From a virus, in IMG/VR virus record IMGVR_UViG_3300031951_000024, positions 62,001 to 126,000 of that record: a stretch of DNA of 64,000 bases; one strand, written 5' to 3'. A program made the position numbers and the translations under genes. Below, in pieces: positions 8,904 through 21,602 of the stretch (the first letter of the stretch is position 1; each line of letters begins with the position of its first letter). The notes under the pieces are model-generated. The model did no database searches and had not been told where the DNA came from. It saw only the letters and a program-made list of their open reading frames with translations.

Positions 8904-8975
8904 GGTCTCTTAGTTTAACTGGAAAAATACGACTCTTGTAAAGTTGAGTTGTCGGGTCAGTTCCGACAGGGACCT
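8904..8975 (+). tRNA. tRNA-Thr(UGU)
   Basis: Acceptor stem GGTCTCT/AGGGACC, anticodon loop CTTGTAA with anticodon UGU. The T-loop is GTCAGTT instead of the usual TTCRANY, so positions 54 and 58 are both G. No CCA is encoded. Confidence 0.88.
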
Positions 8976-8988
8976 CAAAAAAGAAAAT

Positions 8989-9000
8989 GTTCTTTGACAT
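8989..9000 (+). promoter_or_regulatory. boxA-like element
   Basis: GTTCTTTGACAT resembles the boxA antitermination sequence found in Bacteroidota rRNA leaders. It lies between tRNA-Thr and tRNA-Ser. Confidence 0.5.
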
Positions 9001-9013
9001 ATCGGCCTTAAAA

Positions 9014-9097
9014 GGAGAGGTAATCACAGCGGCCTGTGATCCCGTCTTGAAAACGGTGAGTACCGAAAGGTATGGGGGTCGGCACCTCATCTCTCCT
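9014..9097 (+). tRNA. tRNA-Ser(UGA) with unusual D-arm
   Basis: Acceptor GGAGAGG/TCTCTCC, anticodon loop CTTGAAA (UGA) and a variable arm TACC-GAAA-GGTA typical of Ser. The D-arm region forms a 7-bp hairpin ATCACAG/CTGTGAT with a CGGC loop instead of the normal short stem and GG-containing loop. The T-loop is GTCGGCA (G54/G58). Confidence 0.8.
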
Positions 9098-9107
9098 CTT
9101 TTATAAT

Positions 9108-9179
9108 GTCCTGTAGACGAATTGGCAGAGTCACCTCACTTTGAACGAGGAGTATGGAGGTTCAACCCCTTCCGGGACA
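9108..9179 (+). tRNA. tRNA-Gln(UUG)
   Basis: Anticodon loop CTTTGAA (UUG), T-loop TTCAACC, acceptor GTCCTGT/CCGGGAC with one mismatch. Confidence 0.88.
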
Positions 9180-9192
9180 ACAATAATAAACA

Positions 9193-9268
9193 TAGGGTAG
9201 TTGGCTAATTGGCTAAGCCGCCTCGTTTGGGACGAGGAAGATGCAGGTTCAAGTCCTGTCTACCCTAC
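9193..9268 (+). tRNA. tRNA-Pro(UGG)
   Basis: Acceptor TAGGGTA/TACCCTA, anticodon loop TTTGGGA (UGG), T-loop TTCAAGT. Confidence 0.92.
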
Positions 9269-9284
9269 TAAAAAACTATAAGTT

Positions 9285-9473
9285 ATGATAACAAACGAAG
9301 AATGTGAAAAAATTTCTATCAAAGGTAAGTTGAGTGGTTTAAATAATTACTATATTAGCCTTGTTAAAATTAGTAAGGACCCATCATATCGTGGGGATTT
9401 AAGTGAAGAACTTAAAAGAGTGGAAACAGAAATAAAAATAAACAATCAAAAACTAATGTCTTATGAAAAGTGA
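9285..9473 (+). CDS. Small hypothetical protein between tRNA genes
   Basis: 62 residues starting MITNEECEKISIKGK. It is helical and charged (SEELKRVETEIKINNQK) and may form a short coiled coil. It lies 16 bases after tRNA-Pro and 18 before tRNA-Lys, and so is probably co-transcribed with the tRNAs. No family recognised. Confidence 0.6.
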   Translation: MITNEECEKISIKGKLSGLNNYYISLVKISKDPSYRGDLSEELKRVETEIKINNQKLMSYEK

Positions 9474-9491
9474 CAAGTATGACAAACGAAA

Positions 9492-9564
9492 CCCCTCGTA
9501 GCTTAATCGGGAAAGCACCATACTTTTAATATGGGGAGAATCGGATCGTAACCGGTCGGGGGGA
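9492..9564 (+). tRNA. tRNA-Lys(UUU)
   Basis: Acceptor CCCCTCG/CGGGGGG, anticodon loop CTTTTAA (UUU). The T-loop is ATCGTAA: A54 and T58 replace the universal T54/A58 pair. Confidence 0.88.
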
Positions 9565-9574
9565 CAAAAAACAC

Positions 9575-9648
9575 ACACTCTTAGCTCAGTTGGTAGTAGC
9601 GGTTGTTTTACATACAACAGGTCATAGGTTCAAGTCCTATAGGGTGTA
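9575..9648 (+). tRNA. tRNA-Val(UAC)
   Basis: Acceptor ACACTCT/AGGGTGT, anticodon loop TTTACAT (UAC), T-loop TTCAAGT. Confidence 0.92.
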
Positions 9649-9654
9649 CAATAG

Positions 9655-9781
9655 GTTGATTAGGGAAGTACATAACGTTAACGTGTCAGTAGTTCGTAGT
9701 TATGTGGGAGTTTTAACTGTCATAGTAAAGCTAATCGTAAAATCAGATGTCCACAGAACCATCTTCTGATTTCCTAAACTT
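9655..9781 (+). ncRNA. Structured spacer RNA between tRNA-Val and tRNA-Tyr
   Basis: No open frame. GATTAG (9658) pairs with CTAATC (9731) and encloses a 7-bp ACATAAC/GTTATGT helix. A second hairpin starts at 9742 (ATCAGATG). It does not fold as a tRNA by eye. Class unknown. Confidence 0.4.
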
Positions 9782-9862
9782 GGGAGAGTTGAGCAATTGG
9801 TTGGCTCAGCAGACTGTAAATCTGTCGCGAAAGCCTTGGGGGTTCAAGTCCCTCCTCTCCCA
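9782..9862 (+). tRNA. tRNA-Tyr(GUA)
   Basis: Acceptor GGGAGAG/CTCTCCC, anticodon loop CTGTAAA (GUA), variable arm GCGAAAGC, T-loop TTCAAGT. Confidence 0.94.
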
Positions 9863-9871
9863 CAACAAAAT

Positions 9872-9944
9872 GGACAAGTAGCTCAATTGGTAGAGCAATC
9901 GGCTGTTAACCGATAGGTTGTAGGATCGTACCCTTCCTTGTCCG
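9872..9944 (+). tRNA. tRNA-Asn(GUU)
   Basis: Acceptor GGACAAG/CTTGTCC, anticodon loop CTGTTAA (GUU). T-loop ATCGTAC (A54/T58). Confidence 0.92.
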
Positions 9945-9950
9945 CAATAA

Positions 9951-10023
9951 GTTCACGTAGCTCAATTGGTAGAGTGCCGATCTGATATGTCGGAGGTAAT
10001 GGGATCGTAACCCGTCGTGAACA
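9951..10023 (+). tRNA. tRNA-Ile(GAU)
   Basis: Acceptor GTTCACG/CGTGAAC, anticodon loop CTGATAT (GAU), T-loop ATCGTAA (A54/T58). Confidence 0.92.
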
Positions 10024-10081
10024 CAAAAGAGGAATAACTTGCGTAGGTGCCTCAAGGAACTGCAGTCCTACTACGCTCTAT

Positions 10082-10170
10082 GGAAAGTAATCCCTGAAGG
10101 CGACGGGGCATGCCTGCTAAGCATTGCGATCGGTGAGAATCCGATTGTGGATCGTTACCACTGCTTTCCT
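10082..10170 (+). tRNA. tRNA-Ser(GCU), divergent
   Basis: Acceptor GGAAAGT/GCTTTCC (7 bp), anticodon loop CTGCTAA (GCU), and a long variable arm ATCGG/CCGAT as in Ser tRNAs. T-loop ATCGTTA on stem GTGG/CCAC. The D-arm (CCC..GGG) is irregular, so standard scanners could miss this gene. The spacer just upstream (10040-10077) holds a GCGTAG/CTACGC hairpin. Confidence 0.65.
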
Positions 10171-10179
10171 CAACATATG

Positions 10180-10252
10180 GTGTATGTAGCTCAATCGGTA
10201 GAGCGTTGGTTTGTGGAACCAAAGGTAATGGGATCGTAACCCATCATACACA
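10180..10252 (+). tRNA. tRNA-His(GUG)
   Basis: Acceptor GTGTATG/CATACAC with a G at -1, anticodon loop TTGTGGA (GUG), T-loop ATCGTAA (A54/T58). Confidence 0.92.
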
Positions 10253-10447
10253 CAAATAGTTCACAACGGACAAGGCTTAGGCAAGTGAGTTGAGAATGAG
10301 TCGTAGGAGATATTACCAAAATGATTAAGTTCAATAAAGGAATCGTTTGGACTACAAAAAGTTTGATACAAGAGATTGGTGGGTGGCGAGTGGTTGACCA
10401 GAACTATTTAAATATCCGATGTCGGTCCCGAGCTAGGTCGGGCATTT

Positions 10448-10518
10448 GCGTGGTACAGACAAGGTGTCGGGTAGGTCTCCAAAACCTCACTGGGTGGGTT
10501 CAATTCCTACACCACGCG
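10448..10518 (+). tRNA. tRNA-Trp(CCA)
   Basis: Acceptor GCGTGGT/ACCACGC, anticodon loop CTCCAAA (CCA), T-loop TTCAATT. The D-arm is compact: GACA/TGTC with a 3-nt loop. The ~190-nt spacer before it has no convincing gene, only a CCCGA/TCGGG hairpin at 10426. Confidence 0.8.
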
Positions 10519-10530
10519 CTAAAAATAATT

Positions 10531-10560
10531 TTGGTGGTTAAAAAACTTTTTGTATCTTTG
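10531..10560 (+). promoter_or_regulatory. Host-type promoter TTG-N19-TATCTTTG
   Basis: TTG (10531) and TATCTTTG (10553-10560) are 19 bases apart. The start codon of the next gene is exactly 4 bases after the -7 element, so the mRNA should be leaderless. Confidence 0.8.
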
Positions 10561-10564
10561 AGAT

Positions 10565-11062
10565 ATGAAAAACAGACTACCATACGAAGCAACAGGAAAG
10601 GCAATCAAAGGGTATAGTGACTCTAAAATTGCAAAAGGTGAAACAAACGATTGTGTTGTAAGAGCATTTGCGTCCTCATTTGAGGTTTCATATGACTATG
10701 CACACAAGTATGTCGCTGAAGAGTTTAATAGACAACCAAGAAGAGGGACATTTGGGACTCCATTAAAATTTGTTAAAATGTCCGATAACAGAGTTATGAT
10801 AAACGGAAAAAAAGTTCATATTGTTGGTGAAAGAAAGAACGACTATATGTTAAGATCTTTGGATTACCCCGTTAAGGTTAAAGGTGAAGTGGTTACAAGA
10901 AAAATGACTGTTGGTACCTTTGTTAAGAAAAATCCAAAGGGAACTTTTTTTGTACTTGTTAAAGGTCACGCTTTTACAATTAAAGATGGTGTTGTTGTTG
11001 GAAACTTTGAGGATTCTCAAAAATTGAAAAGACCGATGCGTTGTGCATTTGAAATTAAATAA
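10565..11062 (+). CDS. Predicted papain-like cysteine peptidase
   Basis: 165 residues. NDCVVRAFA near residue 29 looks like the catalytic Cys helix of papain-fold peptidases. GHAFTIKDG near residue 138 would supply the His, and VVGNFED just after it an Asn/Asp. The order Cys-His-Asn fits the clan, but no close family is recognised. It is transcribed from its own host-type promoter and predicted to be leaderless, so it is an early or middle gene. A target (host protein, or a ubiquitin-like or toxin-type substrate) cannot be read from the sequence. Confidence 0.55.
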   Translation: MKNRLPYEATGKAIKGYSDSKIAKGETNDCVVRAFASSFEVSYDYAHKYVAEEFNRQPRRGTFGTPLKFVKMSDNRVMINGKKVHIVGERKNDYMLRSLDYPVKVKGEVVTRKMTVGTFVKKNPKGTFFVLVKGHAFTIKDGVVVGNFEDSQKLKRPMRCAFEIK

Positions 11063-11064
11063 AA

Positions 11065-11140
11065 GGAACTATGGTGTAAGTGTGGTGTGTCACGTTGGAC
11101 TGAAAATCCAAAGGTTGGGGTTCAACTCCCTATGGTTCCA
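11065..11140 (+). tRNA. tRNA-Phe(GAA)
   Basis: Acceptor GGAACTA/TGGTTCC, anticodon loop CTGAAAA (GAA), T-loop TTCAACT. It starts 2 bases after the preceding stop codon. Confidence 0.9.
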
Positions 11141-11163
11141 CAAACAAATAAATTAAGGAAATT

Positions 11164-11619
11164 ATGAACAGAGTATTCAGAAAAGTAACCGGAGAATCTG
11201 TTCCTGACATTGTAAAACATACTGTTGATATATTAAAGGAATGTCCCTGGGTTGAGGTACACATTGGTACTGACTCTCAGAATCATAGAAGAAGCACTAT
11301 ATATGTTACAGCAATTGCTTATAGATTTGGGAATAGGGGGGTTCATTATATCTATCACAAACAAAAGACAAAAAAGATTAAAGATAAATGGACCAGATTA
11401 TGGAATGAGGCCGATTATTCAATTGAGGTTGCAGAGTGGTTAACCACAAAAGTGAATGTAAAGGTGGAAATAGATTTAGATTACAACAGCGACTTAAAAC
11501 ACTTCAGCTCAAAATTAGTCCAACCGGCTGTTGGTTGGGCGACTTCACTGGGGTACAAGACAAACATTAAACCCCACAACCAAATTGCAACAAGGGCGGC
11601 AGACCACCACTGCCGCTAA
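11164..11619 (+). CDS. RNase H-like nuclease family protein (DUF458/YkuK-like)
   Basis: 151 residues. VEVHIGTDSQNH near residue 35 places an Asp at the end of a beta-strand, as in the RNase H fold. VEIDLDYNSD near residue 103 and ATRAADHHCR at the C-terminus complete the pattern of the predicted RNase H-like family represented by YkuK (PF04308). The family is uncharacterised and assumed to act on nucleic acid. It sits between tRNA-Phe and tRNA-Cys in the same direction, which makes RNA processing or degradation an attractive but unproven role. Confidence 0.75.
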   Translation: MNRVFRKVTGESVPDIVKHTVDILKECPWVEVHIGTDSQNHRRSTIYVTAIAYRFGNRGVHYIYHKQKTKKIKDKWTRLWNEADYSIEVAEWLTTKVNVKVEIDLDYNSDLKHFSSKLVQPAVGWATSLGYKTNIKPHNQIATRAADHHCR

Positions 11620-11623
11620 TTAT

Positions 11624-11696
11624 GAGAGGTTGTCCGAGCGGCGTTAGGTCTGTGGTTGCAACCCACAGTACGGGGGTTCAAGTCCCTCACCTCTCT
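11624..11696 (+). tRNA. tRNA-Cys(GCA)
   Basis: Acceptor GAGAGGT/ACCTCTC, anticodon loop TTGCAAC (GCA), T-loop TTCAAGT. Confidence 0.92.
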
Positions 11697-11705
11697 CAAC
11701 AAAAT

Positions 11706-11779
11706 GCCCCTATGGCGGAATAGGTATACGCGTCAGATTTAGGATCTGAATTTTGCAGGTTCAAGTCCTGCTAGGGGTA
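11706..11779 (+). tRNA. tRNA-Leu(UAG) with short variable loop
   Basis: Acceptor GCCCCTA/TAGGGGT, anticodon loop TTTAGGA (UAG), T-loop TTCAAGT. The variable region is only about 5 nt, whereas bacterial Leu tRNAs normally have a long variable arm. Confidence 0.85.
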
Positions 11780-11804
11780 CAAAACTTTAAAAAAATAAAC
11801 GATT

Positions 11805-11960
11805 ATGAAAACGTATGACCAACATAAGATGAAAAGAACTCAGATCAGGGAAGACCAGGTAAAAGCCGGATTCTTTGACGGTAGATTTGTTTCCCGGGTT
11901 GAGGAGTCAAAAAATACTTACACACGAAAGATTAAACATAAAAAACAATTTTTTGTTTAA
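11805..11960 (+). CDS. Small basic hypothetical protein
   Basis: 51 residues, very basic (MKTYDQHKMKRTQIRED, ending HKKQFFV), possibly nucleic-acid binding. It lies just after tRNA-Leu and before a late-type motif. No family recognised. Confidence 0.5.
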   Translation: MKTYDQHKMKRTQIREDQVKAGFFDGRFVSRVEESKNTYTRKIKHKKQFFV

Positions 11961-11986
11961 TATTTACACTTTTTAAAAGTATTATA

Positions 11987-11993
11987 TATTTAT
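11987..11993 (+). promoter_or_regulatory. Late-type promoter motif TATTTAT
   Basis: TATATATTTATAAC lies 22 bases before a 23-codon open frame at 12016 (to 12090) that is followed by a terminator. This is the same arrangement as at 8716-8896. Confidence 0.45.
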
Positions 11994-12115
11994 AACAAAA
12001 ATAATAAAACTGCAAATGAAAAATTTACATATCATATCTTTGAGAGGGTTAGCAGAAGCTGAGGATTCTATCTATGTGAAGATGGTGTGATAAATTAATA
12101 CATAAAATATTAGAA

Positions 12116-12144
12116 ACCCATCTTCAAAAAAGATGGGTTTTTTG
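12116..12144 (+). terminator. Rho-independent terminator running into boxA
   Basis: AAACCCATCTT pairs with AAGATGGGTTT, then a T-run. The T-run continues directly into a boxA-like GTTCTTTGACA. Confidence 0.9.
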
Positions 12145-12155
12145 TTCTTTGACAT
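12144..12155 (+). promoter_or_regulatory. boxA-like element
   Basis: GTTCTTTGACAT is the same sequence as at 8989, here fused to the end of a terminator. Confidence 0.45.
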
Positions 12156-12156
12156 A

Positions 12157-12187
12157 TTGGAAATATAAAAAATTAAATATACCTTTG
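12157..12187 (+). promoter_or_regulatory. Host-type promoter TTG-N20-TACCTTTG
   Basis: TTG (12157) and TACCTTTG (12180-12187). The ATG of the next gene is exactly 4 bases downstream, so a leaderless mRNA is predicted. Confidence 0.75.
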
Positions 12188-12191
12188 TTGT

Positions 12192-12485
12192 ATGGTAAAA
12201 TTTAGTGATATAAAGTTTAAACCCCATAGCATGGGTGTTGGTCTTCAGGGTACTATTTTCTTTCCGGGAGGATATGGAATTTCTTGTGTTAGATTTAAAT
12301 CTCCTTTTGGTGATAGATATATGTCTTATACAAGTAACGAAGATGAGTGGGAAGTTGCAATCCTAAAAGGTGATGAAAACAACTGGGAACTTTGTTATGA
12401 TACAATTTTAACAAATGATGTTTTGGGATACCAAACAAAAGAAGATATTGAAAAAATTATGAGATATCTTATAAGATTACATTAA
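12192..12485 (+). CDS. Hypothetical protein, leaderless
   Basis: 97 residues. The N-terminal half is beta-rich with many Gly and aromatics (GVGLQGTIFFPGGYGISCVRF), followed by EDEWEVAILK and a helical C-terminus. Not recognised. It has its own TAnnTTTG promoter with the start codon 4 bases downstream, and so is predicted to be expressed early or middle from a leaderless mRNA. Confidence 0.65.
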   Translation: MVKFSDIKFKPHSMGVGLQGTIFFPGGYGISCVRFKSPFGDRYMSYTSNEDEWEVAILKGDENNWELCYDTILTNDVLGYQTKEDIEKIMRYLIRLH

Positions 12486-12490
12486 AAAGA

Positions 12491-12522
12491 TTTGGTAGAT
12501 TAAAAAATTTGACATATCTTTG
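12491..12522 (+). promoter_or_regulatory. Host-type promoter for structured RNAs
   Basis: TTTG (12491) - N20 - TATCTTTG (12515-12522). The flanking bases (AAAAAGATTTGG) are shared with the promoter at 14218, so the two RNA operons have duplicated promoter regions. Confidence 0.8.
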
Positions 12523-12533
12523 TAAGACAAACG

Positions 12534-12572
12534 ATGGGGGTAGGAAGTTTAGAAATTGGTATCCTACCCCCA
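12534..12572 (+). promoter_or_regulatory. Leader hairpin upstream of boxA
   Basis: GGGGGTAGGA pairs perfectly with TCCTACCCCC in the first 50 nt of the transcript. A smaller hairpin occupies the same place in the 20150 transcript. Confidence 0.7.
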
Positions 12573-12587
12573 GATAAAGGGAAAAAA

Positions 12588-12599
12588 GTTCTTTGAAAA
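12588..12599 (+). promoter_or_regulatory. boxA-like element
   Basis: GTTCTTTGAAAA, just before a structured RNA that lacks any open frame. Confidence 0.6.
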
Positions 12600-12600
12600 C

Positions 12601-12741
12601 ATTGTGATTTATTACACTAAAGCGAGGGGGAAAACTTTAGGTAGTATGTGTTGAACTAGCTTGCTCCGACTAGCACGGTCTAATCCGCCGTGAAGCATTT
12701 AATAATGGAGTAATGATGCTGATACATATAAATCACAACTT
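12601..12741 (+). ncRNA. Structured RNA A (multibranched, unknown class)
   Basis: An 11-bp closing stem pairs TTGTGATTTAT with ATAAATCACAA. Inside are hairpins CTAAAG/CTTTAG, CACGG/CCGTG and AGCAT/ATGCT. It is clearly less AT-rich than neighbouring genes and has no coding frame. Promoter, leader hairpin and boxA lie upstream. I do not recognise the family. Confidence 0.65.
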
Positions 12742-12746
12742 TTTAA

Positions 12747-12845
12747 AATATTGTGGTGGTAAGAAAAGGTGAACTCGTTAAGTTCATAGACCTGTTGACA
12801 AAAGATGGTGAAACGAGTGTGGTTGTCAACTACTGTATCACAGAT
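12747..12845 (+). ncRNA. Structured RNA B
   Basis: Between RNA A and tRNA-Met. Hairpins TGAACT/AGTTCA and GTTGACA/TGTCAAC (7 bp). No coding frame. Probably processed from the same transcript. Confidence 0.45.
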
Positions 12846-12847
12846 AT

Positions 12848-12920
12848 AGCAGGCGGGAGGTAGAGGATCTCACCGGTCTCATAAGCCGGTTTAACTTGGT
12901 GCGATTCCAAGGCGTTGCTA
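12848..12920 (+). tRNA. tRNA-Met(CAU), irregular
   Basis: Anticodon loop CTCATAA (CAU) on stem CCGGT/GCCGG, T-loop TGCGATT on stem CTTGG/CCAAG. The acceptor stem pairs AGCAG-CG with CGTTGCT only if one G is bulged. The D-arm is also unusual. Confidence 0.65.
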
Positions 12921-12927
12921 CAACAAA

Positions 12928-12991
12928 AAGGGTGGATAGGTGGGAGGGCCTTTCCTAAAAGACGGCACGCTAGGCCCGTGTTCACCCTTAA
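12928..12991 (+). ncRNA. tRNA-like element without an anticodon arm
   Basis: AAGGGTGGA pairs with TTCACCCTT as an acceptor-like 9-bp stem. CACG/CGTG with a 7-nt loop CTAGGCC stands where a T-arm would be, and TAGG/CCTA where a D-arm would be. No normal anticodon stem is visible. It could be a degenerate tRNA (TTTCCTA resembles a Gly UCC loop) or a processing element. Confidence 0.3.
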
Positions 12992-12994
12992 AAT

Positions 12995-13066
12995 GGTCCA
13001 TTGGTGTAGTGGCTAACATACATCCCTGTCACGGATGTGCTCCGGGTTCAATTCCCGGATGGACCG
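12995..13066 (+). tRNA. tRNA-Asp(GUC)
   Basis: Acceptor GGTCCAT/ATGGACC, anticodon loop CTGTCAC (GUC), T-loop TTCAATT. Confidence 0.94.
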
Positions 13067-13095
13067 CTAAACAATTAAAAACTAAACAAAATGAA

Positions 13096-13317
13096 ATGTT
13101 AAAGTTTAAACTGGGGTTGTGGGGTGTTGTAGGTACCACAATGATTTACATCTACATAATGAATTTATTTTTCAGTTATGTAATCAACCGGGAGGTTGAT
13201 GAAATCCTACAAATCGGTGCTAGTTTTATAGCTTTATTCTACACCGTTTTTCAAATAAAGCTAATAGTAAAAGAAATAACAAATTTATTTAACAAAAAAG
13301 AAAAAGAAAATGATTAG
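13096..13317 (+). CDS. Small two-TM membrane protein
   Basis: 73 residues with two hydrophobic segments (GVVGTTMIYIYIMNLFF and GASFIALFYTVFQIKLIV) and a Lys/Glu-rich end. The start is the ATG at 13096; the open frame extends further upstream but overlaps tRNA-Asp. Its stop overlaps the start of the SPFH gene (ATGATTAG), so the two are translationally coupled and probably act together at the membrane. Confidence 0.65.
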   Translation: MLKFKLGLWGVVGTTMIYIYIMNLFFSYVINREVDEILQIGASFIALFYTVFQIKLIVKEITNLFNKKEKEND

Positions 13318-14212
13318 TTTGATTGTAACATTAGTGTTTTTGATTATCGCAGGGGTGATGATTGTAAAAGGTAAAATTAACGATGAGTCCTCAAGTATTC
13401 TAAAAGGAGTTGTTGTTGGTGTTGTGGGTGTATTGATTGGCGTATTCCAACCATACTCACTTGAGAGAATTGACGCCGGTCACAAAGGTATTGTGGTTAA
13501 CTTGTCCGGATCTGAAAGAGGGGTTGCTTCATATCAGTACAAAACTGGGTGGGTTGTTTATAACACCTGGTTCACGCAAGTTCTTGAGTTCCCAACCTTT
13601 CAACAACATATTGAGTATGATGATCAGGTTGTAATTACAAAGGGTGGGTTCTCAGCAACTATTAAACCATCGTTTAACTACTCGTTGAAACCGGAAGCAA
13701 TTGGTGATATGTTTGAAAACCTACGATTGGGTGTTAAAGAAATTGAACAAGGGTGGCTTAAAAACGCAATTGTTGGGGCGGTTAATGATGAAGCAAATAA
13801 ATGGGAAGTTGATAGTATTTTTTCTAATCGTCAACAGTTTGAAGCGGCAATTGTTGTTGAGTGTAATAAACGATTAACAAAGTGGTTTGATGTGTCACAA
13901 CTTAGAACAAACATTACACCACCGGAGGCGCTCCAGGAATCAATTATTGCAAAAACAAAAGCTATCCAACAAGCTGAAGCCTCCGAGCAACAAGCAATTG
14001 CTGCAATTGCAGAAGGAAAACGTAAGGTGGCTGTCGCAAGAGCCGACTCGGCAGAAACAATTATCAACGCAAAAGCGGCATCACTTGCAATTGAGTTGAA
14101 ACAACAAAAACTAACACCGATGTATATTGAGTATTTGAAGGCAAATGCTTGGGATGGTAAACTTCCAACAACAATGGCAGGCAGTTCTGGAACGTTTTTG
14201 AATATTAAATAA
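13310..14212 (+). CDS. SPFH/Band-7 (prohibitin-like) membrane protein
   Basis: 300 residues. The N-terminus has two hydrophobic segments (LIVTLVFLIIAGVMIV and GVVVGVVGVLIGVF), then the Band-7 entry R-I-D-A-G-H-K-G-I-V near residue 52 and an SPFH body to about 190. A long Ala/Glu/Lys-rich coiled coil follows (AIQQAEASEQQAIAAIAEG). This is the classical prohibitin layout; such proteins form large rings in the membrane. Phage prohibitin-like proteins are known in T4-like phages, with roles in lysis inhibition or membrane protection proposed but unsettled. It sits among RNA genes. Confidence 0.85.
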   Translation: MISLIVTLVFLIIAGVMIVKGKINDESSSILKGVVVGVVGVLIGVFQPYSLERIDAGHKGIVVNLSGSERGVASYQYKTGWVVYNTWFTQVLEFPTFQQHIEYDDQVVITKGGFSATIKPSFNYSLKPEAIGDMFENLRLGVKEIEQGWLKNAIVGAVNDEANKWEVDSIFSNRQQFEAAIVVECNKRLTKWFDVSQLRTNITPPEALQESIIAKTKAIQQAEASEQQAIAAIAEGKRKVAVARADSAETIINAKAASLAIELKQQKLTPMYIEYLKANAWDGKLPTTMAGSSGTFLNIK

Positions 14213-14217
14213 AAAGA

Positions 14218-14249
14218 TTTGGAGGATTGAAAAATTCTCCTTATCTTTG
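14218..14249 (+). promoter_or_regulatory. Host-type promoter for structured RNA C
   Basis: TTTG (14218) - N20 - TATCTTTG (14242-14249). It shares its upstream AAAAAGATTTGG with the promoter at 12491. Confidence 0.8.
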
Positions 14250-14269
14250 TAAAACAAATAAGGAAAGAA

Positions 14270-14280
14270 GTTCTTTGAAA
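14270..14280 (+). promoter_or_regulatory. boxA-like element
   Basis: GTTCTTTGAAA, about 16 nt after the predicted transcription start. Confidence 0.6.
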
Positions 14281-14288
14281 TAATAGAT

Positions 14289-14512
14289 TGGTAAGATAGC
14301 AGATAGACCTACGTCAGCAGACTCTCATAGAGAATCAGAAATGATGAGTAAAACGGAGCCCCTATCAGACTAACGTGTTGAGGAGGTACTCAAAGTTTTC
14401 CGGGAGGTTAACTGGTAATAAACGATGGTTTGGGTAGAACGGATGTTAAAGGCGAGGTGTGGGTAGTAAGGATGGGGTAACCCACGAATAAGTAAATCTT
14501 AAGGTCTTACCA
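14289..14512 (+). ncRNA. Structured RNA C (~224 nt, unknown class)
   Basis: TGGTAAGA (14289) pairs with TCTTACCA (14505-14512). Inside are CTCT/AGAG and GTGGGT/ACCCAC hairpins and much purine-rich single strand. No coding frame. It follows its own promoter and boxA. Confidence 0.6.
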
Positions 14513-14525
14513 TTTTTTAAAAATC

Positions 14526-14607
14526 TAAATCACGGGTGGCTCCCTTAATAGTTAAGGCTGACCTTAAGCATCTGACGCATGTCTATACAGGGGGCGAAAG
14601 TGATTTA
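14526..14607 (+). ncRNA. Structured RNA D (~82 nt)
   Basis: TAAATCAC pairs with GTGATTTA at the ends. The hairpins CCTTAA/TTAAGG and GGG/CCC lie inside. The closing sequence resembles that of RNA A (GTGATTTA/TAAATCAC), so the two may be related or may share a processing signal. Confidence 0.5.
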
Positions 14608-14672
14608 AAATATTGTAATGAACAACGCGACCGCAGGAGTTGTACCTTTATGGTTTTGTAATGTGGTTTTAT

Positions 14673-14747
14673 GTTCCGTTCGTCTAGCTGGTTTAGGACA
14701 CTTCCCTTTCACGGAAGAGATCATGGGTTCAAATCCCATACGGAATA
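14673..14747 (+). tRNA. tRNA-Glu(UUC)
   Basis: Acceptor GTTCCGT/ACGGAAT, anticodon loop CTTTCAC (UUC), T-loop TTCAAAT. Confidence 0.93.
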
Positions 14748-14757
14748 CAAAAAATAT

Positions 14758-14831
14758 GGTCCCGTAGCTCAGCTGAATAGAGCAACGCCCTTCTAAGGCG
14801 AAGGTCACAGGTTTGAATCCTGTCGGGACTA
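14758..14831 (+). tRNA. tRNA-Arg(UCU)
   Basis: Acceptor GGTCCCG/CGGGACT, anticodon loop CTTCTAA (UCU), T-loop TTTGAAT (position 56 is T, not C). Confidence 0.92.
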
Positions 14832-14847
14832 CAAAAAATTAAAAGTT

Positions 14848-14979
14848 ATGAATTATACAATAGAAAAGAAATGTCATGCTTGGATAGGAATATGGTGGCA
14901 AGTTAAGGAAGATAAAGAGATAGTCTTTAAGAGCAAACGAAAAAAAGATTGTGTGTTCTACGTGAACAGTAAAAAATAG
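14848..14979 (+). CDS. Small hypothetical protein
   Basis: 43 residues (MNYTIEKKCHAWIGIWWQV...). It is basic and aromatic, with beta-strand character. Its stop codon overlaps the first bases of the following Leu-type tRNA. No family recognised. Confidence 0.5.
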   Translation: MNYTIEKKCHAWIGIWWQVKEDKEIVFKSKRKKDCVFYVNSKK

Positions 14980-15081
14980 TCAGGTGGCGGAATTGGTAGA
15001 CGCACCTCAACACCCTGGGGTTGAGACATTAAATGAGGGTTAACAATGGGTCTCTTATAGGTTCAAATCCTGTCCTGACTA
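14978..15081 (+). tRNA. Leu-type tRNA with expanded anticodon region
   Basis: Acceptor AGTCAGG/CCTGACT, Leu-like D-arm (GCG..CGC) and T-arm ATAGG/CCTGT with loop TTCAAAT. Between them the anticodon region does not give a 7-nt loop. It folds as CTCAAC/GTTGAG around ACCCTGGG, or alternatively CCTCA/TGAGG around a 24-nt loop, and GAGAC/GTCTC can form the variable arm. The anticodon is undetermined; a short insert is possible. Confidence 0.6.
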
Positions 15082-15343
15082 CACGTGGTAGGGTTCATCA
15101 CCCCCTAGTGTGCCCCACATAATGAGAAACGGAGTGATATCCGTAGGGGAACGTACATTGTCGTATAGGGAGAACGACTGGGAAAGTAAGTTGTATTAGA
15201 TACAGTGGAAACGCACATCTCAACAGAGGTGGACTGAAAGTTTGCCCGACCTGGGTTGAGGACGAAAGAAACTATTTCTAACCTACCTTTTTGGTGGGGA
15301 CAACCGGAGCACCTGTAAGCTGAATAAATTAGGGTGTTAACAA
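15082..15343 (+). ncRNA. Structured spacer between two Leu-type tRNAs
   Basis: 262 nt without a convincing frame and less AT-rich than the coding regions. Hairpins ACGGA/TCCGT and TGTAT/ATACA are visible. Class unknown; it may be part of the same processed transcript. Confidence 0.4.
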
Positions 15344-15443
15344 AGGCAAGTGGCGAAATCGGCAGACGCTAAGGTAGATCTAACTAAGATTGTACCGAGA
15401 CAATGTAAAAGTTGTCGTATAGGTTCAAATCCTTTCTTGTCTA
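15344..15443 (+). tRNA. Leu-type tRNA with expanded anticodon arm
   Basis: Acceptor AGGCAAG/CTTGTCT, D-arm GCG..CGC, variable arm GACAA/TTGTC, T-loop TTCAAAT. The anticodon arm is an extended helix (GGTA-GATC with GATT-G-TACC) and its loop TAACTAA has A, not T, at position 33. Decoding identity is unclear. Confidence 0.55.
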
Positions 15444-15459
15444 CAAATACAATTAAAAG

Positions 15460-15531
15460 ATGAATATGTTATTGTTTGTATCATTTGTTTTGTTTATACT
15501 TTTAATAGGTAGAAAAAAAAGAAAATATTAA
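15460..15531 (+). CDS. Possible 23-residue membrane mini-protein
   Basis: A single hydrophobic segment (LLFVSFVLFILLI) ends in GRKKRKY. It starts just after the Leu-type tRNA. Its 3' end lies in the stem of the next structured RNA. Weak support. Confidence 0.35.
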   Translation: MNMLLFVSFVLFILLIGRKKRKY

Positions 15532-15615
15532 CTTCAGTACCCATACAGCGGTGAGACGGGCTAAGTAAGATACGATTCCTCGGGGCTGGGAGTAGAATGC
15601 TGAAGAAATATTTTC
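15521..15615 (+). ncRNA. Long-stem structured RNA (~95 nt)
   Basis: GAAAATATT (15521) pairs with AATATTTTC (15607), continued by CTTCAG/CTGAAG after a small internal loop: 15 bp in total enclosing a less AT-rich core. It directly precedes tRNA-Leu(UAA) and may direct processing. Confidence 0.55.
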
Positions 15616-15623
15616 TAAAATAT

Positions 15624-15703
15624 GCTCCGATGGTGAAATTGGTATACACGATGCGTTTAAGCCGCATTCCTACGGGGTGAGGGTTCAAATCCCTCTCGGA
15701 GTA
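15624..15703 (+). tRNA. tRNA-Leu(UAA)
   Basis: Acceptor GCTCCGA/TCGGAGT, anticodon loop TTTAAGC (UAA), variable arm TCCTACGGGG, T-loop TTCAAAT. Confidence 0.92.
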
Positions 15704-15705
15704 CT

Positions 15706-15782
15706 GTTGTGTTATTCCCTTGAGAAAGGAATTACGGTGGGATATGGTCTTGATTTGGATTTAACCTAGTATGAATCACAAC
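15706..15782 (+). ncRNA. Structured spacer RNA
   Basis: GTTGTG (15706) pairs with CACAAC (15777) and encloses an ATTCC/GGAAT hairpin. It lies between tRNA-Leu and tRNA-Met. Confidence 0.4.
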
Positions 15783-15806
15783 ACAGAGGACTTCTCATCC
15801 TCAACC

Positions 15807-15880
15807 GGACCTTTAACTCAGTTGGTCAGAGTGCTTGACTCATAATCAAGGAGTCGTAGGTTCAAACCCTACAAGGTCCA
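15807..15880 (+). tRNA. tRNA-Met(CAU) (elongator or Ile2)
   Basis: Acceptor GGACCTT/AAGGTCC, anticodon loop CTCATAA (CAU), T-loop TTCAAAC. If C34 is modified to lysidine it would read AUA as Ile; this cannot be decided from sequence. Confidence 0.92.
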
Positions 15881-15897
15881 CACCGCTTAAGATGCAA

Positions 15898-20186: not shown

Positions 20187-21098
20187 ATTAGAATATCCAT
20201 TCAGAATGTTTGATGATGAAATCCTTGCGGTTGATTCTGAGTAACAAACTGATAAAGATATTTGGCCGTATATAGTCAATAAATAAACTGGGAAACCAGG
20301 ATAAAGTGGGTCAGTAGTGTAACTGATCTGCGGTTTGGGTAACCGAACTTAAGTATACAAGCGGGATACCGTTTAACCTTTAGTACCGAGGGCAACGCTG
20401 TAGGGAAAGTGGTTAGATGATTGGGCGATGTGGGTCGTCCGGTTGAGGTGGGAACACCAATAGGAATAACTCGTAGGGATATTGCAAAAAATAAGATTAT
20501 CCAATTTTATTATTGCGTGTCCCAATATCAGAGGATACTTAAAACCGAAAGGTATGATAACAAACAGGTGGTGCTGACATTATCCTTGACCCTTGCCTAC
20601 CAAGGCATAAGTCACGAAGTAATCTTAAAATATTGAGATGGGGACATTTCAGAGAGTAGTTGAGTATCGGCTCGTTCAAAAGATGAGCTGGCTCTGGTGG
20701 CGGACCACTACTTTCATAATCCACGACACAAAAACCTAAGAAAAAATTATGAAATTAATTTAATCAGAAAGGAAAAGTGTCCGTCAGGTTTGGATGAAAG
20801 GTGACTACATAGTAATGAGCCGTTCATTGCACACAAGGATCCCAAGTCTAAGTGTAATTATCCGAAAAACCTTTAGTCCCGCAAGGACGAACTGGGGAGG
20901 CATCCTCGGAAAGAGTCAAGTAAGGTGAGAGTAGTCCAAATCTCAAGGAGTGGTTCCCCTAAGTGACCGTCACTGAGAAATACTTCTCAAAAGGAAGTGG
21001 ATAGGAGTAGAATAAATAATGACTCTAAAGGTTCTCAATAAAACGTGTAATCTCAACGTTCTTTTTAGGTTTAATCTTATAAGACAAAAAAAATTAGT

Positions 21099-21211: not shown

Positions 21212-21602
21212 TGGTGGAGATGCGGGGCTCCGACTCCCCGGTCCAGCTCGTCTTGTTTAAAAGACCACTACATGCTTAGGTTGGTATTTTCTAATACCCC
21301 AAAATAGTTGATTTGTTCTTTTCCATCGTAAATCAACAACCAATGGTTTCTAATCCGGATTTAGAGAGCCGACCAGGTTGCTCTATAAAACTACGACTTC
21401 TGTTGCTAGGCTATATGTCTGCCGGCCCCCGGTTTTTGTTGCGATTACGCTACAGCAACCTCAGAAGTGCGGATTAACCCAACAGCTTCCATTTTGTTTA
21501 GCACATTGCCATTTAAAAAGTGAATCAGTTTTTAACGAGATTAATTCAGTCCCGACATGCTCCTTTTATTCAACCAACGCCTGTCAAATCCAATACATCC
21601 CC
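21212..21602 (-). ncRNA. ssrA: Phage tmRNA
   Basis: The minus strand starts GGGGATG and continues TGGATTTGACAGGCGTTGG, a tmRNA 5' signature. It ends CATCTCCACCA, whose CATCTCC pairs with GGGGATG as the acceptor stem; CCA is encoded. Length 391 nt. About 160 nt from the 5' end an open frame ends ...TSEVAVA then TAA, plausible as the proteolysis tag. Read upstream it can begin with Gly (GGC at ~93), but the resume codon is not certain. The T-arm loop is (A)GTCGGAG, not the usual TTCGANT. It is expressed from its own TTG-N20-TATATTTG promoter with a boxA, and is convergent to the giant RNA. tmRNA rescues stalled ribosomes and tags the product. Confidence 0.9.

What the first reader, a model, noticed from the sequence alone, without database searches (positions are those of the whole stretch)
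8904..10252. tRNA T-loops with covarying 54/58 swaps
The T54-A58 pair of the T-loop is nearly universal. Here Lys, Asn, Ile, Ser(GCU) and His have ATCGTAA/ATCGTAC/ATCGTTA (A54, T58), and Thr and Ser(UGA) have GTCAGTT/GTCGGCA (G54, G58). T55 and C56 are kept in all of these. The tmRNA loop (GTCGGAG) also fits the G/G type. The other tRNAs are normal. Changing both partners together suggests selection, perhaps to avoid a host modification enzyme or a defence tRNA nuclease that reads the T-loop.
Basis: seen in the sequence. Interest (0 to 1): 0.8.

Follow-up and report, generated by a model that had tools for sequence, protein, structure and literature searches.

The report
Phage tRNAs with rewired T-loop pairs
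Seven tRNA genes in this phage replace the almost universal U54-A58 pair of the tRNA T-loop with A54-U58 or G54-G58; the same coordinated swap recurs in hundreds of phage tRNAs and in a few bacterial and archaeal chromosomes, so it looks like a real second way to build the tRNA elbow rather than an error or decay.

Summary
The T-loops are as described: A54/U58 in Lys, Asn, Ile, Ser(GCU) and His; G54/G58 in Thr and Ser(UGA). Only the tmRNA claim fails (8-nt loop). The swap is neither artefact nor decay. Pattern scans of 2.9 million viral contigs give at least 122 distinct A54/U58 tRNAs, against 2 U54/U58 and 0 A54/C58. Position 60 is a third partner: with a non-U at 54, positions 54 and 60 are Watson-Crick complementary in 2 tRNAs where about 295 are expected. 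In bacteria with a single tRNA-His gene, that gene can be A54/U58, so the form must work. It is rare in cells (1 of 391 unselected genomes), about 2-3% in phage arrays and 10% in this phage's clade, where it switched repeatedly. Phage tRNAs also rewire the other elbow pairs: 19-56 (all four Watson-Crick forms) and 18-55 (G.U to A.G). Best reading: an alternative T-loop geometry reached by compensatory change on weakly constrained phage tRNAs. Evasion of a T-loop-reading nuclease or modification enzyme is possible but has no specific support: most tRNAs of each array stay canonical, carriers are not clustered, and T-arms are no more variable than other stems.

The parts
8904..8975 (+). tRNA-Thr(UGU), T-loop GTCAGTT at 8956-8962: G54/G58
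   Evidence: ARAGORN, RF00005 49.9 bits; same loop in 6 distinct Thr genes of relatives
9014..9097 (+). tRNA-Ser(UGA), T-loop GTCGGCA at 9078-9084: G54/G58; not called by ARAGORN or Rfam
   Evidence: Hand-parsed (acceptor GGAGAGG/TCTCTCC, anticodon TGA 9048-9050, T-stem TGGGG/CCTCA); syntenic Ser(UGA) between Thr and Gln in relatives
9492..9564 (+). tRNA-Lys(UUU), T-loop ATCGTAA at 9545-9551: A54/U58
9872..9944 (+). tRNA-Asn(GUU), T-loop ATCGTAC at 9925-9931: A54/U58
9951..10023 (+). tRNA-Ile(GAU), T-loop ATCGTAA at 10004-10010: A54/U58
10082..10170 (+). tRNA-Ser(GCU), T-loop ATCGTTA at 10151-10157: A54/U58; not called by ARAGORN or Rfam
   Evidence: Hand-parsed (acceptor GGAAAGT/GCTTTCC, anticodon GCT 10116-10118); syntenic Ser(GCU) ATCGTTA in L553, L554, L565 and others
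10180..10252 (+). tRNA-His(GUG), T-loop ATCGTAA at 10233-10239: A54/U58
14758..14831 (+). tRNA-Arg(UCU), T-loop TTTGAAT at 14812-14818 (U56) with G18-A19 at 14775-14776: A19-U56 in place of G19-C56
21212..21602 (-). tmRNA whose T-arm has an 8-nt loop (AGTCGGAG); considered and not counted as G54/G58
   Evidence: RF00023 86.7 bits, alignment shows 8 loop residues against 7; sequence

Best explanation
These are working tRNAs with an alternative T-loop. The non-Watson-Crick pair 54.58 that closes the T-loop exists in a few interchangeable forms: U.A, A.U, A.A and G.G, with C.A, C.G and U.G minor. Position 60 must not be complementary to 54, otherwise a 54-60 Watson-Crick pair would lengthen the T-stem and break the loop. 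U55, C56, R57 and the D-loop GG stay, so the elbow docks as usual. Shown: coordinated change of 54, 58 and 60; A.A and A.U forms one step apart on a nearly identical tRNA; repeated switching between sister phages; A54/U58 as the only tRNA-His gene found in some bacteria. Inferred: the change is reached by near-neutral compensatory paths (U.A/Y60 to A.A/R60 to A.U/non-U60) and by block replacement of the T-arm; it is tolerated far more in phages because phage tRNAs are redundant with host tRNAs and under weaker constraint; the isotypes that never or hardly switch (Leu, Arg, Gln, Cys) are those whose synthetase or other partners read the elbow. Also inferred: these tRNAs lack m5U54 and m1A58, and probably Psi55.
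For: Position 60: non-U54 Watson-Crick with 60 in 2 tRNAs, 295 expected. Within isotypes only 54, 58 and 60 stand far above background in association with class. Sole tRNA-His in Kiritimatiellae-type genomes; class sample 5 A.U against 10 U.A, one gene each. Only tRNA-Lys(CUU) found in a complete Gracilibacteria chromosome. Clade of 80 relatives: 59 A.U, 521 U.A, 6 G.G, no A.A or U.U; minimum changes His 9, Asn 10, Lys 8, Thr 6. Asn pair L394/L104 identical except 58 and 59; His pair identical outside the T-arm. Frequency 45/1712 phage tRNAs against 1 of 391 unselected genomes. Parallel covariation at 19-56 and 18-55.
Against: A54.U58 is probably not a simple isostere of U54.A58, because the purine Hoogsteen face that A58 supplies is lost; no structure is known to me. 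No expression, charging or ribosome data exist for these phage tRNAs. Enrichment in phages fits selection as well as relaxed constraint. The link between isotype bias and synthetases is untested. Cell and phage rates were measured with partly different tRNA subsets.
Confidence: 0.68

Rival explanations
1. Immune or modification evasion: the swap protects phage tRNAs from a host nuclease or modification enzyme that reads U54 or A58.
For: Roughly ten-fold or greater enrichment in phages over sampled chromosomes; frequent switching between sister phages, as in an arms race; A54/U58 removes U54 and A58 as targets and breaks the TruB consensus GUUYRANYC (PMC7912444); isotype bias could mirror isotype-specific nucleases.
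Against: Most tRNAs of an array stay canonical, and carriers are not clustered beyond chance (P = 0.32). The T-arm is no faster than acceptor and anticodon stems. The same loop sits on single-copy chromosomal tRNAs. I found no T-loop-reading defence nuclease in the papers searched.
Confidence: 0.17
2. Single origin: one ancestral A54/U58 tRNA was duplicated, and copies changed anticodon and spread among phages.
For: In the window Ile and His T-arms differ by one base, and Lys, Asn, Ile and His share similar D-arms.
Against: A54/U58 occurs on about 19 amino-acid types including class II Ser, with same-isotype U54/A58 neighbours up to 97% identical. T-stems of A.U tRNAs within one array are only slightly more alike than others (4.0 of 10 positions differ against 4.8). 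It also occurs in Kiritimatiellae, Bacteroidales, Bacilli, Chloroflexi and Hadesarchaea on different isotypes.
Confidence: 0.09
3. Decaying or inactive tRNA genes.
For: Two Ser genes fall below detection by standard tools; no CCA is encoded.
Against: Full cloverleafs, anticodons, G18G19 and U55C56 kept; coordinated three-position change; orthologues conserved across relatives; the normal U54/A58 genes in the array also lack CCA.
Confidence: 0.04
4. Sequencing or assembly error.
For: The window is from a metagenome-assembled virus record.
Against: The same loops recur in independent contigs, isolate genomes and a complete chromosome.
Confidence: 0.01

Closest known systems
Canonical tRNA T-loop (U54.A58 trans Watson-Crick/Hoogsteen pair, U55, C56, R57, Y60)
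   Same: Seven-nt loop, U55-C56-R57, D-loop GG, G53-C61 closing pair, cloverleaf
   Different: 54.58 is A.U or G.G and 60 no longer follows the pyrimidine rule; predicted not to be a substrate for m5U54 or m1A58 enzymes, nor to fit the published TruB consensus
Eukaryotic initiator tRNA T-loop (A54, with a longer A54-A58 purine pair; PMC7912444)
   Same: A54. The phage A.A class seen here (ATCGAAA) has the same A54/A58 (that the initiator also has A60 is my recollection)
   Different: In the window 58 is U, not A, and the tRNAs are elongators
Suppressor tRNAs selected in E. coli with G54-A58 or G54-G58 (Zagryadskaya, Doyon and Steinberg 2003, doi 10.1093/nar/gkg448; content recalled, the paper is not held)
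   Same: G54/G58 of Thr and Ser(UGA) is a combination found active in that selection
   Different: Natural genes here; A54/U58, the commonest natural alternative found here, was as I recall not among the selected forms
Elbow-deviant tRNAs (tRNA-Pyl, metazoan mitochondrial tRNAs; PMC7609411)
   Same: Depart from the standard D-loop/T-loop rules
   Different: Those lose G18G19 or TPsiC; here they are kept and only pair identities are exchanged

Membership tests
Transfer RNA (RF00005) | Cloverleaf with 7-bp acceptor, anticodon arm, 5-bp T-stem and 7-nt T-loop | tested here: met
   All 17 ARAGORN genes, including Lys, Asn, Ile, His and Thr, score above the RF00005 gathering cut-off; both Ser genes parsed by hand only
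Transfer RNA (RF00005) | Elbow docking residues G18, G19, U55, C56 | tested here: met
   D-loop GG in 266 of 286 A.U tRNAs; T55C56 in 265 of 286; present in all seven window genes
Canonical T-loop subtype | U54.A58 closing pair with pyrimidine 60 | tested here: not met
   A54/U58 or G54/G58 in seven genes; 60 is A in five, C in Asn, T in Thr
TruB (Psi55) minimal substrate | T-arm sequence 53-GUUYRANYC-61 (PMC7912444) | tested here: not met
   GAUCGUAAC and variants differ at 54, 58 and usually 60; actual modification not testable
Eukaryotic initiator-type T-loop | A54 with A58 | tested here: not met
   58 is U in the five A54 genes of the window
G54/G58 type for the tmRNA | 7-nt loop with G54 and G58 | tested here: not met
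   8-nt loop AGTCGGAG
Functional tRNA | Processed, charged and used by the ribosome | not testable with these tools
   Indirect only: single-copy tRNA-His of the same type in bacteria
Anti-defence tRNA variant | Resists a host enzyme that attacks canonical T-loops | not testable with these tools
   Host and any such enzyme unknown; the distribution shows no signature of it

The most novel reading that the evidence does not exclude
A54.U58 with a non-U at 60 is a second natural T-loop type, with its own geometry and free of Psi55, m5U54 and m1A58, and phages use it so that a subset of their tRNAs is invisible to host enzymes that read the T-loop.
Probability: 0.17. Interest if true: 0.85.

Novelty: new variant of a known kind. 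Interest (0 to 1): 0.6.

Why it matters
U54-A58, G18-U55 and G19-C56 are taught as near-invariant. Phage tRNAs show which substitutions nature accepts: A.U, A.A and G.G at 54.58 coupled to 60; all four Watson-Crick pairs at 19-56; A.G at 18-55. That gives a ready-made mutational map of the tRNA elbow, natural designs for hypomodified or orthogonal tRNAs, a correction for gene finders that miss such genes, and a direct test of whether the elbow modifications are needed for decoding.

Tried and rejected
Defence or arms-race signature: tested as clustering of A.U genes within arrays (none) and as extra variability of the T-arm (none). D-loop compensation for the 54/58 swap: no column beyond 54, 58 and 60 stands out. 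tmRNA as G/G: rejected on loop length. Phage-encoded TruB: none in the 154-kb record. Cultured phages: Mycobacterium phage Blue7 and Acinetobacter phage Aci01-1, two BLAST neighbours examined, have ordinary U54/A58 loops; I found no cultured phage with A54/U58. Literature: nine searches of open papers found no description of natural A54/U58 tRNAs; subscription papers are not covered. Zagryadskaya 2003 was not held. ARAGORN-based counts under-report odd loops, so the pair table rests on pattern scans. Sequences are related by descent; the Fisher odds are descriptive.

Full report
Setting. The window is positions 62001-126000 of a 154,296-bp IMG/VR phage record. It holds a tRNA array (17 ARAGORN genes at 8904-15881, plus two Ser genes, a Trp and a Leu-like gene that ARAGORN misses), a GOLLD RNA and a tmRNA. 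Its nearest relatives are uncultured viral contigs up to about 300 kb; in the phage reference set only two 640-kb uncultured phages show weak protein similarity to the one ORF tested.

Observation. The two Ser genes are missed by ARAGORN and Rfam, but relatives carry syntenic copies that are called. The tmRNA is real, but its T-arm has an 8-nt loop, so it does not belong to the G/G set. Arg(UCU) is a third kind of exception: U56 with A19.

Is the covariation real? I scanned 2.9 million viral contigs with a D-arm anchor plus a T-arm of fixed U55, C56 and purine 57. Of the 11 A.U hits with U60 found by a complete scan, only one lay in the truncated A.U scan, so the truncated scan had probably seen about a tenth of the collection. 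In tRNAs without the anchor, in loci fetched for other reasons, 1712 tRNAs gave 45 A.U, 28 A.A and no U.U (Fisher odds about 1200; relatedness makes the P-value descriptive).

A third partner. With A.U, position 60 is C, A or G and almost never U; with A.A it is a purine; with C54 it is mostly U. Over all viral tRNAs seen, when 54 is not U, 54 and 60 are Watson-Crick complementary in 2 cases where about 295 are expected. The simplest reading is negative design: a 54-60 pair would extend the T-stem and destroy the loop. The familiar Y60 of canonical tRNAs fits the same rule. Within eight isotypes, 54 and 58 (by construction) and 60 stand far above every other column in association with class.

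Does it work? Ten Kiritimatiellae, Lentisphaerae and Verrucomicrobia-type genomes with an A54/U58 tRNA-His show no other credible tRNA-His. In a sample of 57 genomes of that class, 15 matched a tRNA-His pattern, one gene each: 10 U.A and 5 A.U. In the complete Gracilibacteria chromosome CP042461.1, among the 30 tRNA loci read, the only tRNA-Lys(CUU) is A54/U58, alongside a canonical Lys(UUU). Other chromosomal or MAG cases are Gly(CCC) in Bacteroidales, Phe in Bacilli and Chloroflexi and Thr in Hadesarchaea. A single-copy tRNA-His must decode His codons, so A54/U58 is compatible with translation. For G54/G58, I recall that an E. coli selection (Zagryadskaya 2003) found it active; that paper could not be opened.

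How it evolves. In 80 relatives with the same array, distinct tRNAs are 521 U.A, 59 A.U, 6 G.G, 1 C.A and no A.A or U.U. Switching is isotype-specific: His 15 A.U and 12 U.A, Ile(GAU) 17 and 6, Asn 9 and 16, Lys 5 and 15; none in Leu, Arg, Cys, Phe, Met, Tyr, Val or Gln. On a tree of the marker protein the minimum numbers of changes are His 9, Asn 10, Lys 8, Thr 6, Ile 4; the marker is short and arrays may recombine. Elsewhere, an Asn tRNA exists in A.A and A.U forms that differ only at 58 and 59, and a His tRNA exists in U.A and A.U forms identical outside a wholly replaced T-arm. So both point changes, with A.A as a plausible intermediate, and block replacement occur.

Selection or relaxed constraint? 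For evasion: A.U is rare in chromosomes (1 of 391 unselected genomes of three phyla; about 6.7 canonical anchor tRNAs per Bacteroidota genome) but about 2-3% of phage tRNAs and 10% in this clade. Against: A.U genes are spread over arrays as a binomial would spread them (P = 0.32); most tRNAs in each array remain canonical; T-arms are not more variable than acceptor or anticodon stems in matched comparisons; the same loops live in chromosomes. Isotype bias is strong: Leu 0 of 268, Asp 18%, Phe 16%, Ile 11%, His 10.5%, Lys 10%, with A.A concentrated in Glu. It fits constraints from synthetases or other partners, but isotype-specific nucleases could also produce it. I therefore favour relaxed constraint plus compensatory structure, with evasion as a live minority view.

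Consequences for modification. A54 cannot be m5U, U58 cannot be m1A, and the loop departs from the TruB consensus GUUYRANYC (PMC7912444). The record encodes no TruB. Absence of Psi55 is a prediction, not a result.

A wider pattern. The same viral tRNAs show exchange of the other two elbow pairs. With C56 the D-loop has GG (3537 of 3578); with U56 it has GA (85 of 85, with GG in only 5); with A56, GT (13 of 14); with G56, GC (9 of 9): all four Watson-Crick pairs at 19-56. With G55 the D-loop has AG in place of GG (54 of 55 contain AG, only 5 contain GG), that is A18.G55 for G18.U55. Arg(UCU) in the window is an A19-U56 case. I found no account of these natural exchanges in the open literature searched.

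Limits.

Noticed in passing
window 14758-14831, and viral tRNAs in general: Elbow pair 19-56 exchanged in phage tRNAs through all four Watson-Crick combinations (Arg most often); the window's Arg(UCU) is A19-U56.
   Followed up: yes
viral loci, e.g. L546, L575, L010: 18-55 covariation: G55 goes with A18 instead of G18 (54 of 55 contain AG, 5 contain GG); G55 is over-represented in A54/U58 tRNAs (20/286 against 33/3268).
   Followed up: partly
window 14978-15081: Leu-like class II tRNA gene with an 8-nt anticodon loop (stem CTCAAC/GTTGAG, loop ACCCTGGG); relatives have array-end genes that ARAGORN reads as 4-base anticodon Leu (ttaa). Possible frameshifting tRNA.
   Followed up: no
window 20652-21059 (+) and 21212-21602 (-): GOLLD RNA next to a convergent phage tmRNA with an 8-nt T-loop; ARAGORN does not call the tmRNA.
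   Followed up: partly
viral tRNAs, all loci: Near-identical tRNAs often differ by a wholly replaced acceptor or anticodon stem, suggesting block exchange of tRNA arms in phages.
   Followed up: no
L423, L458, L404, L406 and similar: Phage tRNA-Arg genes are the main carriers of 19-56 exchanges, perhaps because arginyl-tRNA synthetase reads A20 in the D-loop (identity element from memory).
   Followed up: no
L237, L244: Array-rich contigs in Chloroflexales and Oscillochloris MAGs in which most T-loops are TGC (G55) type; probably phage or mobile arrays.
   Followed up: no
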